47,749 nucleotides of DNA from a virus, in IMG/VR virus record IMGVR_UViG_3300049795_000013, positions 1 through 47,749 of that record. The stretch is one strand, 5' to 3'. The first letter of the stretch is position 1. The number at the start of each line of letters is the position of its first letter. Both the position numbers and the translations under genes were made by a program. The notes under the pieces are model-generated. The model ran no database searches, was not told the origin of the DNA, and saw nothing but the letters and a program-made list of their open reading frames with translations. This document shows positions 24,170-28,335 of this stretch, in pieces.

Positions 24170-24466
24170 GTGCCCATGCAAAAGCGAATCGAAAGCGATA
24201 CGTGTGACCTCCTACGCGCACAATTCAAGCTGGGCAGAACCATAACGGCGCTGAACGCCGAAATCATCTGTGGGATTGACGTACGCAACGCACGGGAATA
24301 TCTGATCGCGCTGCATGCGGCAGGCGAAGTGCACATCAAGGCGTGGCTTCGTGATGCAAAGGTCGGCCCGTGGACCCCTATCTATATATGGGGGTGTGGG
24401 CGCGACGCACCGAAGCCACGCCGAAAAATCAGGATCTACGTATCCGATCTAGCAGAGTCTTGCTAA
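24170..24466 (+). CDS. Small winged-helix-like protein inserted against the late operon
   Basis: The 98-aa protein begins at GTG 24170 or ATG 24176. Residues 10-55 look like a winged-helix: LLRAQFKLGRTITALNAEI, then VRNAREYLIALHAAGEVHIKAWL. After this comes GPWTPIYIWGCGRDAPKPRR and a basic tail. This combination is found in small phage-borne or prophage-borne DNA-binding proteins. It is the only plus-strand gene inside the long minus late block. Its end overlaps the TerL end by 38 bp tail to tail. I infer an added gene (moron-like) with its own promoter, possibly a regulator. Confidence 0.7.
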   Translation: MPMQKRIESDTCDLLRAQFKLGRTITALNAEIICGIDVRNAREYLIALHAAGEVHIKAWLRDAKVGPWTPIYIWGCGRDAPKPRRKIRIYVSDLAESC

Positions 24467-26894
24467 TAGACATCTTGCCCGGAAGCGGCACAAGACGCGT
24501 GTAGGCCCGGCTGAACGCGTCCCCCTGATCTTTATATGTGCCGTTGGGGAAGCTGCGCAATTCATCCTTCAGCGCTTTATTCCAATCGCCGATGACCATA
24601 TCGCAGTTGCCAACGTTCACTTCAGCTGCCAGCGGCATCGCACGGGTTTCCTTGTCGCCCGATTCAGGCCCCCACACCACCGGGTAGCCTTTCAGCTTTT
24701 TGACGATGTACTCAGTCTGCGCGGTTCCGCCTGCACCAGGGTCATCAGGGATGTCCTGCGTGATCTTGCGGCCGTCCATAACAGCGGTGTCTTGAATTTG
24801 CTGGTCACGCTCACCCGGCCCCCATTGTCCGCGATGCACCCCGCCGAAGATGACGCGCCCCGATTCTTGGTGCACCCCGAGCAGGCCACCCACCGTGTAC
24901 GCGCCGCCGTTCGGGGTCGCTGCCAAGTCCCAGCCACGCACCCACTTGATACGGCCAGCGGGCAGCGCTTCAATCATCCTGATCTTGTCGGGCATGAACA
25001 TCAAGCCAGCGCGTGGCTTTGGTAACTGTTGGAACAGGCTGCCCCAGGTGCGTGCGTCGGCCCTGAACTGTGACCAGTGCTGTTCAGTGAACCACTCGGG
25101 CCAAAGCATCTCACCGTACGCACGCCCCAATGGGTCGCTGTCGGTTTCGCATTGCGCTTGAAGGCAAAGCACGGTCCATACGTTGCCGTCTTGGCAAACG
25201 ATGTCACCGGATTCACCGTCCCAATCAACGGGCAGGATGCGGCCCGACAAGTCATTCTCGTTCCATCTGGTTTGGATAATGAATAGCGATCCGCCCGGCA
25301 CCAAGCGCGTCTTGATGTCATCTTGGAACGCTGCCCAGGTCTTTTCTTGTATCACTTCGCTGTCTGCCTGCTCGCGACCTTTCACGGGGTCATCGATACC
25401 GAGGATTTCGAAGCGATTGCCGGTTGCGCCGCCCAGGATGCCCGTTGCCATGTATTCGCTACCGTTGGTCAGGACGAAGTTATTCGCTGCTGCCGATACA
25501 TTAGACAGCTCAACGTCCCACAGCTTGGCGTAGCGTGCCTGCGTGATGATGCTGCGCGTGCGGCGACCCATCTTGACTGCGAGCGCGTCCGCATAGCTGA
25601 ACAGGCCCACGCGTGTCTTTGGGTACTTGCCCATCAGGTACGACGGCATGACCACGGAAGCGTATGTACTGTTGTGAGTCGGTGTCATCGATTTGCCACA
25701 TAAGAACAGATGACTTGGTGAATCAACCTCAATGCAAACAGTATCTGCGTTTCCAGCGGGTTCAACATCAATGTAGGTGTTTGGCGTCCGATACTGGTCA
25801 CGCGTCAAAATGGCTTTACGTGGCATACGTGCTGAATTCGCCATGTAGAATGAAACTCGGTACACCGGGCCGCAGTCCTTGCCGTACAGCGTGGCGCGCC
25901 CCTCAATCAACGCAGCCTTTACCCCCAATGACCGCACCAACTCTTGCACCATCTCAGCAAGAAATTTATTGGTGTTGCAGAAGGTCGTACATCCGCGTTT
26001 CTTGCACACAGTTCCGTCTGTATCGATCAACCCTTGCAGCAGTGATAACCGTTGATCGATCGAACCTCGCATGTAGATTGCTGGGATGTGCTTGTACCCG
26101 TAGGTTTTGTGAGGAACATCGTTGATCAGCGCAAACTTTACAAACTCAGCGCGAACGCCAATAACACTGAACAACGTAGGTACTGATGTTGTTCGGGTCG
26201 CATAGCCCAGTCGCTCAAGTTCGGCGCGCAACCATGGTTGATCTTCAATAGACGACGTTATCCGCATACCAGCGCTGTTTCCATCGCCTAACCATACACC
26301 CAACAAATACGGGTCAATCGGCAAATTTGCATCGGGTAGCTGCAACGCACCACCTTTCAAAATCATTGGTTGTTTGCTGCGTGTACGACAAAGTTCTTTG
26401 GTTTCTTTGATCTTGAAAACCTGCCGCTTCCCGCAAAGTCGGACTTGCCATTCGTGATCTTCGTCAGCAACAACGGTGTCCCCACAATCGGTGCTGACAT
26501 TGTACACAGGGCGATTAATCCACACCGGACTTTTCCACGTGACATTGCACACTGCTCCGGTTTCAGAAAACACCTGATCGCCAACACGCAGCGCGCCCAT
26601 AGTCGTCCAACCCGTTGGAGTTGGGATAGGTGTGCCTAGCGTGAGTGCCTTCGCGCTGCCGGGCGGCATGAAGATCATCAAGCGACCTCCGTACGTCAAG
26701 TAGCATTTCTCTACCGCCTTCAAAATCAATTTGTGATGGGGTGCCAGCATCAATTCGGCCACGGTGAAGTGATCCGCGTCCTCATCTTCAACTGGGCGAC
26801 CGGGAACGTCTACGTACTCAGCGAACGATATGGGGTCATCCCTGGCACGCCTGCGCCGCAGTAACTCGGATGCGGCTTTGGCACTGGGGGTCAT
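24429..26894 (-). CDS. terL: Terminase large subunit interrupted by an intein
   Basis: This 821-aa precursor is the packaging ATPase and nuclease. The N-extein ends at FMPPGSAK (residues 75-82), the start of Walker A; a 326-aa intein follows (83-408), and the C-extein resumes with STYASV (409-414), completing the P-loop. Walker B is EILGIDDP (496-503). The nuclease part has RGWDLA (655-660, Asp657) and GDAFSRAY (791-798, Asp793). The spliced protein would be 495 aa, normal for this group. Splicing must occur to give a working P-loop. It overlaps TerS as ATGA. Its stop overlaps the small plus-strand gene by 38 bp. Confidence 0.95.
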   Translation of the reverse strand: MTPSAKAASELLRRRRARDDPISFAEYVDVPGRPVEDEDADHFTVAELMLAPHHKLILKAVEKCYLTYGGRLMIFMPPGSAKALTLGTPIPTPTGWTTMGALRVGDQVFSETGAVCNVTWKSPVWINRPVYNVSTDCGDTVVADEDHEWQVRLCGKRQVFKIKETKELCRTRSKQPMILKGGALQLPDANLPIDPYLLGVWLGDGNSAGMRITSSIEDQPWLRAELERLGYATRTTSVPTLFSVIGVRAEFVKFALINDVPHKTYGYKHIPAIYMRGSIDQRLSLLQGLIDTDGTVCKKRGCTTFCNTNKFLAEMVQELVRSLGVKAALIEGRATLYGKDCGPVYRVSFYMANSARMPRKAILTRDQYRTPNTYIDVEPAGNADTVCIEVDSPSHLFLCGKSMTPTHNSTYASVVMPSYLMGKYPKTRVGLFSYADALAVKMGRRTRSIITQARYAKLWDVELSNVSAAANNFVLTNGSEYMATGILGGATGNRFEILGIDDPVKGREQADSEVIQEKTWAAFQDDIKTRLVPGGSLFIIQTRWNENDLSGRILPVDWDGESGDIVCQDGNVWTVLCLQAQCETDSDPLGRAYGEMLWPEWFTEQHWSQFRADARTWGSLFQQLPKPRAGLMFMPDKIRMIEALPAGRIKWVRGWDLAATPNGGAYTVGGLLGVHQESGRVIFGGVHRGQWGPGERDQQIQDTAVMDGRKITQDIPDDPGAGGTAQTEYIVKKLKGYPVVWGPESGDKETRAMPLAAEVNVGNCDMVIGDWNKALKDELRSFPNGTYKDQGDAFSRAYTRLVPLPGKMSISKTLLDRIRRS
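25671..26648 (-). other. Intein with LAGLIDADG homing endonuclease (class 3-like)
   Basis: The 326-aa insertion begins with ALTLGTPIPTPTGW. The first residue is Ala instead of the usual Cys/Ser. Block B has VVADEDHEWQV with Trp67; block F has TVCIEVDSPSHLF with Cys305; the end is PTHN followed by Ser (+1). Ala1, Trp in block B and Cys in block F fit class 3 inteins (WCT triad), except +1 is Ser rather than Thr. The endonuclease motifs are LLGVWLGDG (115-123) and LLQGLIDTDG (203-212), both with their Asp, so the nuclease could be active. Ten Cys are present. The insertion splits the P-loop between Lys and Ser. Confidence 0.92.
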
Positions 26895-27568
26895 TTGCGC
26901 CCTCGCATGATTTCGGCCTCAAGCTCAGCGTCGGTCATCTCTGATTCGTTCTTGATGTTGTGGTTGACCGTCTCTTTGTTCATGCCCAGGTAACGGGCGG
27001 CAGCTTCCCTGGCCGCGTCCTTGGATCGCATCAGCAGCTTTGTACCGTGCTTCGTCCGCTCGACACCCAAATATAAGGCAGCAGCATCTTTGGACAGTTC
27101 GCGGGTGTCCTTGATGCGTTCGTATGGTTCGCCCTCGCCAAAGCATTCTGGGCAATCGTCGTTCGGTTCACGGCGTGGGTTGAACCCTGCGCCGCCCATC
27201 TGGTTGAAATCCTTTTTGCATTGAGCATCGCGGAATTCGTTCAACGTACGTTGATATCGATTTTCGTAGCCGTAGCAATATCGACACGCGCCCTGCCAAT
27301 GTGCGATGAGTTCTCTAGGGTCGGCACGCAGCACTCTGGCGATATCTTCAACAACATCGGTTACAGATAATTTAGGTTTCGATGAAGTTCCAATTTCGGT
27401 CAAAATTTGTTGCGTTTGAGCAACTACGCGATCCAACTTTGTCAGACGTTCGCCTTCCGCCCTCGCGTACACGCCATCATAGCCTGCCCGACGACAAGCT
27501 TTAGTAGCGTTTTTGTCTATGAGCCATTCGTAGATGAACGCGTATTCGTAGGCACTTAAGTTTTCCAT
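26891..27568 (-). CDS. terS: Terminase small subunit with zinc-binding insert
   Basis: The 225-aa protein begins with a helix-turn-helix-like part (EYAFIYEWLIDKNATKACRRAGY, 8-30), as in Terminase_2/XtmA small subunits. Then comes SVTDVVEDIARVLRADPREL and a Cys insert: C95-x2-C98 (CRYC) and C139-x2-C142 (CPEC), enough for one zinc site. The C-terminus is basic and ends before TerL as ATGA. It recognises the packaging start on DNA. RBS AGAGG precedes ATG 27568. Confidence 0.9.
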   Translation of the reverse strand: MENLSAYEYAFIYEWLIDKNATKACRRAGYDGVYARAEGERLTKLDRVVAQTQQILTEIGTSSKPKLSVTDVVEDIARVLRADPRELIAHWQGACRYCYGYENRYQRTLNEFRDAQCKKDFNQMGGAGFNPRREPNDDCPECFGEGEPYERIKDTRELSKDAAALYLGVERTKHGTKLLMRSKDAAREAAARYLGMNKETVNHNIKNESEMTDAELEAEIMRGRK

Positions 27569-27720: not shown

Positions 27721-28335
27721 ATGAGCGATCTCCCAAAGACGCGAGATGCCGCGTATGCATCAGGAAGTAAGTTCTACTTTACAGGAAGGGCCTGCAAGGC
27801 GGGCCATATCAACAAGCGTTACACGAGCGGTGGGAACTGCGTTGACTGCATCGTAGGCGCTAAGGAAATCCAGCGGGTTAAGAATCGCATCCGCGACCGC
27901 GTTCGTATCGCACACGCCAGCAAGGACACGTCTAGCTACACCCTGAGCATCCGTCCGGAGTGGTTCGAGGCCTTCGAGCATCTTAAGGACATCATGAATG
28001 GCGCCAATGTAGAGCAGACCGAGCGAACATGGAGCATGCTCGAAAGCATGAAAAAGGAATCCAAGAATCCGTTTATCAGCGCCACCGACCCTATCAGGGC
28101 CACACTTGCTGTAAATAAACATGTCATCCTAAAGACCGTCGTCTACAAAGATGGCCGGGTGACGAACCTGCCCATGCTCGATATCCGCGAACAGACGGAA
28201 ACGTCGCCCGCGCTGATCAAGTTGAACGGCCAGCTGTATGAGGGCACGCTGATCATGGATTGCCTGCGCGGCACCCGTGAGTTGGTGCACCCGTTCAACG
28301 CTTCCCAATGGCTCTACGACAACCCACCACACTAA
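27721..28335 (+). CDS. Zinc-motif protein, first gene of the plus-strand block
   Basis: The 204-aa protein starts with a short treble-clef-like motif: C25-x3-H29 and C40-x2-C43 (RACKAGHINKRY... NCVDC), seen in several phage proteins of unknown role and near HNH-type folds. The middle (YTLSIRPEWFEAFEHLKDIMNG, 72-93) may be a small helical DNA-binding part. The rest is mixed alpha/beta. It stands alone, with the 21-bp operator copy just before its ribosome site (AAGGA), and a terminator follows. A DNA-binding regulator of the divergent promoters would fit, but is inference. Confidence 0.72.
   Translation: MSDLPKTRDAAYASGSKFYFTGRACKAGHINKRYTSGGNCVDCIVGAKEIQRVKNRIRDRVRIAHASKDTSSYTLSIRPEWFEAFEHLKDIMNGANVEQTERTWSMLESMKKESKNPFISATDPIRATLAVNKHVILKTVVYKDGRVTNLPMLDIREQTETSPALIKLNGQLYEGTLIMDCLRGTRELVHPFNASQWLYDNPPH

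What the first reader, a model, noticed from the sequence alone, without database searches (positions are those of the whole stretch)
25671..26648. Class-3-like intein with Ser +1 splitting the TerL Walker A motif
The intein lies between Lys82 and Ser409 of the P-loop. It starts with Ala, has Trp67 (DHEW) and Cys305 (VCIEV), and ends THN. This fits the WCT class 3 mechanism, but +1 is Ser, so it would be a W-C-S variant. Both LAGLIDADG motifs keep their Asp. Ten Cys raise the option of redox-sensitive splicing. Packaging cannot work until it splices.
Basis: partly seen in the sequence, partly recalled or inferred. Interest (0 to 1): 0.75.

Follow-up and report, generated by a model that had tools for sequence, protein, structure and literature searches.

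The report
Class 3 intein in phage terminase
A phage's DNA-packaging motor gene carries a self-splicing, probably mobile protein insert (an intein) in its ATP-binding loop; it is a standard member of a large known class, not a new splicing variant.

Summary
The TerL gene of this myovirus contig (24429-26894, minus strand) carries a 326-residue in-frame insert at 25671-26648, between the Walker A Lys and Ser. It has Ala1, His65, Trp67, Cys305, Thr324-His325-Asn326 and Ser+1, with two intact LAGLIDADG motifs.

The class 3 assignment is right, but the 'W-C-S variant' claim rests on a misreading. The T of the WCT motif is the intein's own Thr at block G:5 (Thr324, present), not the +1 residue. Ser+1 or Thr+1 is normal for class 3. 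Among 150 related inteins, 148 have full WCT and +1 is Ser 95, Thr 53, Cys 2. A tree built without the class-defining columns puts it with class 3 (100/99).

The redox idea is not supported: the partner cysteine of the one proven class 3 switch (Cys48 of Msm DnaBi1) is Val48 here. Comparison shows a mobile element: a TerL 76% identical is uninterrupted at the same codon, while inteins 73-74% identical sit at the same site in TerLs only 34-42% identical.

Splicing and homing were not assayed. Verdict: new member of a known kind, low interest.

The parts
24429..26894 (-). terL gene, 821-aa precursor (intein-containing terminase large subunit)
   Evidence: phrog_38 1.7e-73, TIGR01630 above its cut-off, Terminase_6N/6C weak
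26649..26894 (-). N-extein, residues 1-82, ends in Walker A ...MPPGSAK
25671..26648 (-). class 3 intein with LAGLIDADG endonuclease, 326 aa
24429..25670 (-). C-extein, from Ser409 (+1) to stop
26364..26648 (-). N-terminal splicing (Hint) part, intein residues about 1-95
   Evidence: aligned to 6rix/6bs8 residues 1-69; boundary approximate
26448..26456 (-). His65-Glu66-Trp67 codons: His B:10 and Trp B:12 of the WCT motif
   Evidence: H in 150/150, W in 149/150 relatives
25782..26363 (-). LAGLIDADG homing endonuclease domain, intein residues about 96-289
   Evidence: PF14528 above its cut-off; fold matches PI-SceI and I-DmoI; boundary approximate
26280..26306 (-). first LAGLIDADG motif LLGVWLGDG (Asp122)
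26013..26042 (-). second LAGLIDADG motif LLQGLIDTDG (Asp211)
25671..25781 (-). C-terminal splicing part (blocks F and G), intein residues about 290-326
   Evidence: boundary approximate
25734..25736 (-). Cys305, block F:4 nucleophile (C of WCT)
   Evidence: C in 150/150 relatives
25671..25679 (-). Thr324-His325-Asn326: Thr G:5 (T of WCT), penultimate His, terminal Asn
   Evidence: T 149/150, H 143/150, N 150/150
25668..25670 (-). Ser+1 (Walker A serine of TerL): second nucleophile, and Mg-ATP ligand after splicing (inferred)
26891..27568 (-). terminase small subunit gene, directly upstream
   Evidence: phrog_51 3.2e-19

Best explanation
It is a full-length, mobile class 3 intein with a bifunctional layout (Hint splicing domain plus a LAGLIDADG homing endonuclease), inserted at the Walker A Lys|Ser junction of a tailed-phage large terminase. 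Expected splicing: Cys305, activated by His65 and Thr324 and positioned with Trp67, attacks the Lys82-Ala1 bond and forms a branched thioester. Ser+1 takes over the acyl group, Asn326 cyclises, and an acyl shift leaves an intact ...GSAK-STY... P-loop. Ser+1 is then the Walker A serine. The precursor has Lys and Ser of the P-loop 326 residues apart, so TerL should be inactive until splicing. At the DNA level the endonuclease would cut intein-free terL alleles at the conserved GSAKSTY sequence, and repair would copy the intein in. Shown here: sequence signature, class by phylogeny, predicted fold, empty and filled sites, intein/extein mismatch in identity, purifying selection. Inferred: splicing activity, order of steps, endonuclease cutting, dependence of packaging on splicing.
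For: WCT plus His, Asn and Ser+1 at aligned positions; WCT invariant in 9 aligned relatives and complete in 148 of 150. Best solved relatives by sequence are the class 3 inteins MchDnaB1 and MsmDnaBi1. The tree, with the four class-defining columns removed, separates 29 class 3 from 11 class 1 inteins at 100/99 with the window on the class 3 side. AlphaFold2 model pLDDT 95.4, pTM 0.93; it matches PI-SceI (Hint + LAGLIDADG, TM 0.78 by query), class 3 mini-inteins (TM 0.85-0.89 by target) and I-DmoI. Mobility: intein identity 73/74% versus extein identity 42/34% with L002/L098; TerL of L003 72% identical and uninterrupted, L209 76% and uninterrupted; 79 of 80 nearest TerLs uninterrupted at the same K|S. 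Nonsynonymous change far below synonymous (pN 0.21, pS 0.82) in the intein, also in the endonuclease part alone (0.23, 0.79). Kin precedent: TerL inteins of mycobacteriophages splice, and two (BAKA, Bethlehem) cut intein-free alleles in vitro (PMC5050341).
Against: No assay of splicing or cutting. Synonymous sites are saturated, so selection is read only qualitatively. The survey of 150 was drawn by similarity, so it is not an unbiased sample of inteins. The nearest inteins are from metagenomes, so host range and direction of transfer are unknown.
Confidence: 0.95

Rival explanations
1. A W-C-S variant: a mechanistic subtype of class 3 in which Ser replaces the T of WCT.
For: +1 is Ser.
Against: The T of WCT is Thr G:5 inside the intein, present as Thr324; +1 is a separate position (G:8) that is Ser or Thr in nearly all class 3 inteins. 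Ser+1 in 95 of 150 relatives. Msm and Mle DnaB class 3 inteins with Ser+1 splice (PMC5222942).
Confidence: 0.01
2. A class 1 or class 2 intein that merely resembles class 3; Ser+1 attacks the N-terminal junction directly as in class 2.
For: Lack of a nucleophile at position 1 is also a feature of class 2 inteins; the block F Cys could be incidental.
Against: Full WCT signature, class 3 side of the tree at 100/99 without those columns, best solved sequence matches are class 3. PMC5222942 states that Ser+1 could not initiate splicing in the class 3 inteins tested. No class 2 sequence was in my tree, so class 2 is excluded by signature rather than by phylogeny.
Confidence: 0.02
3. A redox-gated intein: oxidation of the cysteines holds TerL unspliced until the right moment of infection.
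For: Ten Cys; the catalytic Cys of class 3 inteins can be oxidised (H2O2 inhibits MchDnaB1 N-cleavage; DnaBi1 forms Cys48-Cys118).
Against: The DnaBi1 partner Cys48 is Val48 here and in L002 and L098, although Cys is the commonest residue there among relatives (94 of 150). Only Cys305 is conserved throughout; Cys55, 72, 87, 215 and 220 are largely private to the closest relatives. Bacterial cytoplasm is reducing (general knowledge).
Confidence: 0.06
4. A decayed, splicing-dead or endonuclease-dead relic, so the TerL is non-functional and the contig a defective phage.
For: No functional test; dead inteins exist (Arthrobacter FB24 Arth_1007, PMC3196547, title and abstract start; details not read here).
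Against: All catalytic positions intact, frame open, both LAGLIDADG acids present (as in 126 of 150 relatives), low nonsynonymous change, model confidently folded.
Confidence: 0.04

Closest known systems
Class 3 inteins with LAGLIDADG endonuclease (1701 class 3 inteins counted in PMC7891396, 82.5% with LAGLIDADG motifs)
   Same: No Cys1, Trp B:12, Cys F:4, Thr G:5, His-Asn end, Ser/Thr+1, LAGLIDADG insert between blocks B and F.
   Different: Nothing mechanistically distinctive found; sequence only about 30-47% identical to inteins of the sequenced phages compared.
TerL1-a P-loop inteins of mycobacteriophages and the Kocuria prophage (PMC5050341)
   Same: Inserted between the Walker A Lys and the following Ser/Thr of a large terminase.
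   Different: Host protein here belongs with Terminase_6/phrog_38 terminases (PMC5050341 reports Terminase_6 inteins only at the C-motif site f); phage is a myovirus of unknown host. Same-site inteins in other terminases are already on record (Gordonia phages YungMoney and Delrey21, Porphyromonas phage 005b).
MchDnaB1 (PDB 6rix) and MsmDnaBi1 (PDB 6bs8) class 3 mini-inteins
   Same: Ala1, His65 and Trp67 at identical numbers, Cys F:4, Thr G:5; Ser+1 and a Lys|Ser junction in the mycobacterial DnaB inteins.
   Different: They lack the endonuclease domain; MsmDnaBi1 has the redox partner Cys48, here Val48.
Inteins of L098 (Burkholderiales MAG contig) and L002 (IMG/VR contig)
   Same: 71-74% identical, same site PPGSAK|STY, same signature.
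   Different: Sit in terminases only 34-42% identical to this one.

Membership tests
Class 3 intein | No Cys/Ser/Thr nucleophile required at position 1 | tested here: met
   Ala1; Ala is the commonest first residue, 102 of 150 relatives
Class 3 intein | Trp at B:12 | tested here: met
   Trp67, aligned with 149 of 150 and with Trp67 of 6rix/6bs8
Class 3 intein | Cys at F:4 | tested here: met
   Cys305, 150 of 150
Class 3 intein | Thr at G:5 | tested here: met
   Thr324, 149 of 150
Class 3 intein | Groups with class 3 in phylogeny | tested here: met
   100/99 against 11 class 1 inteins, class-defining columns removed
Class 3 intein | Splicing starts at Cys F:4 through a block F branched intermediate | not testable with these tools
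   needs expression and mutants
   Thr324 is present; Ser is at +1, outside the motif
LAGLIDADG (DOD) homing endonuclease | Two LAGLIDADG motifs with acidic residues | tested here: met
   Asp122, Asp211; PF14528 above cut-off
LAGLIDADG (DOD) homing endonuclease | Fold | tested here: met
   model matches PI-SceI and I-DmoI
LAGLIDADG (DOD) homing endonuclease | Cuts the intein-free allele | not testable with these tools
   intein-free alleles exist (L003, L209), cutting not assayed
P-loop TerL intein (TerL1-a type site) | Insertion between Walker A Lys and following Ser/Thr | tested here: met
   K82|S409; equivalent in uninterrupted L003 GSAKSTY
TerL1-a (mycobacteriophage) group itself | Host protein of the Terminase_1 family | tested here: not met
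   Terminase_6N/6C (weak), TIGR01630, phrog_38; no Terminase_1 hit
Redox-responsive class 3 intein (MsmDnaBi1 type) | Partner cysteine at position 48 | tested here: not met
   Val48

The most novel reading that the evidence does not exclude
Splicing of this intein is conditionally regulated (by oxidation of Cys305 or by pairing with Cys34 or Cys317, or by another cue), so that genome packaging is timed by intein removal. My data exclude only the known Cys48-type disulphide.
Probability: 0.05. Interest if true: 0.55.

Novelty: new member of a known kind. Interest (0 to 1): 0.15.

Why it matters
It adds one well-framed case of a class 3 intein moving between unrelated terminases at one conserved site, with filled and empty alleles in hand. 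It does not change what is known of the splicing mechanism. Correcting the 'W-C-S' reading prevents a false report of a new intein class.

Tried and rejected
(1) W-C-S variant: rejected by the definition of WCT and the survey. (2) Class 1/2: rejected by tree and signature; no class 2 sequence was available for the tree. (3) Redox switch of the DnaBi1 kind: Val48. (4) Idea that the +1 Ser codon marks co-conversion: the intein-bearing alleles closest to this one use AGY and L003/L016 use TCN, but 25 of 79 uninterrupted terminases also use AGY and the excess over codon usage in the survey is modest and not independent (40 observed, 27.4 expected); rejected. (5) PF14890 search of two genomes gave no reference inteins, and the SPbeta region fetched held no intein gene of use; class 1 references came instead. 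(6) Close-relative scan of genome contigs found nothing; the alignment-based scan did.

Full report
Observation. The window is a 47,749-base virus record. PHROG matches for small terminase, portal, head protease, tail sheath, baseplate and tape measure mark it as a contractile-tailed phage. The terL gene 24429-26894(-) reads through without a stop as 821 residues. Residues 83-408 (25671-26648) are an insert between Lys82 and Ser409 of the Walker A loop, MPPGSAK|STYASV. In intein numbering it has Ala1, Asp62-x-x-His65, Trp67, Cys305, Thr324-His325-Asn326 and +1 Ser, ten cysteines, and two LAGLIDADG motifs with Asp122 and Asp211.

What it is. By sequence the best solved relatives are the class 3 inteins of mycobacterial DnaB (6rix, 6riy, 6bs8; E 1e-20 to 3e-19). 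The class 1 gp41-1 intein scores 0.026, and its engineered WCT form 2.4e-4. An AlphaFold2 model from 36 aligned relatives is confident (pLDDT 95.4, pTM 0.93). It matches PI-SceI over the whole length, the class 3 mini-inteins over the splicing domain, and I-DmoI over the endonuclease domain.

Class. The WCT motif is Trp B:12, Cys F:4 and Thr G:5; the +1 residue is a different position, G:8, and is Ser or Thr in class 3 with one Cys exception known in 2016 (PMC5222942; PMC7891396). Thr324 is present, so WCT is complete. In 150 distinct relatives from phage records, IMG/VR and GTDB contigs, Trp is found in 149, Cys in 150, Thr in 149, and +1 is Ser 95, Thr 53, Cys 2. That sample was gathered by similarity, so its frequencies are not those of all inteins, but it was not selected on the +1 residue. 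A maximum-likelihood tree of the splicing blocks, with position 1, Trp, Cys and Thr removed, places the window with 28 other class 3 inteins and apart from 11 actinobacterial class 1 inteins at 100/99. No class 2 sequence was included.

How it works. By homology to inteins studied in PMC5222942, PMC7664689 and PMC6195587: Cys305 attacks the Lys82-Ala1 bond, Ser+1 receives the acyl group, Asn326 cyclises, and the extein ester rearranges. The residue that serves as Ser+1 is afterwards the Walker A serine. These steps are inferred; none was tested here. The claim that packaging needs splicing is likewise inferred, from the 326 residues that separate the P-loop Lys and Ser in the precursor. Terminase inteins of mycobacteriophages do splice in E. 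coli, and two of them cut intein-free alleles (PMC5050341).

Mobility. The TerL of L003 is 72% identical and uninterrupted, GSAKSTY. The best uninterrupted relative, L209, is 76% identical. Of the 80 nearest terminases in IMG/VR none has this intein: 79 read on as K|S at the same place, one has Thr. The two closest inteins, L002 (viral contig) and L098 (Burkholderiales MAG contig), are 73-74% identical to this one and at the same site, while their terminases are only 42% and 34% identical to this TerL. Vertical descent with the host gene would not give that pattern; horizontal movement of the intein would. The intein is poorer in G+C than its exteins (50.6% against 58.5%; third positions 52% against 70%), which fits recent arrival, though the neighbouring small terminase and protease genes have similar values, so it is weak evidence. 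Nonsynonymous change is low in both splicing and endonuclease parts, as expected for a functional element; synonymous sites are saturated.

Redox. In MsmDnaBi1 oxidation joins the catalytic Cys118 to Cys48 (PMC6195587). Position 48 is Val here and in L002 and L098, although Cys is the commonest residue among the relatives (94 of 150). Only Cys305 is universally conserved; Cys34, Cys224, Cys259 and Cys317 recur in parts of the family; the others are mostly private to the closest relatives. Ten cysteines are therefore no evidence of a switch. Direct oxidation of the catalytic Cys, seen in vitro for MchDnaB1, is possible for any class 3 intein.

Known or new. Class 3 inteins with LAGLIDADG domains number over a thousand (PMC7891396). 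P-loop terminase inteins at Lys|Ser/Thr are described (TerL1-a, PMC5050341), and same-site inteins occur in terminases of Gordonia and Porphyromonas phages. The present case is a new, fairly divergent member (about 30-47% identity to the sequenced-phage inteins compared; 71-74% to the two closest environmental ones). Interest is low.

Noticed in passing
L019:34-3804 (IMGVR_UViG_3300045773_000031): A terminase open frame with two inteins of different classes: a class 3 intein at the P-loop (GSGK|S) and a second, class 1-type intein (CLAGDTPI...LVSHN|T) just before TRWHEDD.
   Followed up: partly
L021, L022, L099, L103: Four class 3 inteins end in PTCN: Cys in place of the penultimate His. Three of them sit at PPRHGK|S P-loops. 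YungMoney (L004) ends PTRN.
   Followed up: no
L066, L067: Two class 3-like inteins with Cys at +1; [quoted passage not shown] L067 has a penultimate Gly.
   Followed up: no
L011 (Vibrio phage VCO139), L106: Two inteins with incomplete WCT: Asn in place of Trp (L011, in TerL) and Ser in place of Thr G:5 (L106, ends VPSHN). L106 is the nearest thing here to a true W-C-S intein.
   Followed up: no
window 27721-28335 (+): Gene next to terS, pointing away from it, with a GRxCxxGH...RYTSxGxCVxC pattern. A similar protein lies beside terS in the intein-free relative L003 (4283-4825, minus).
   Followed up: no
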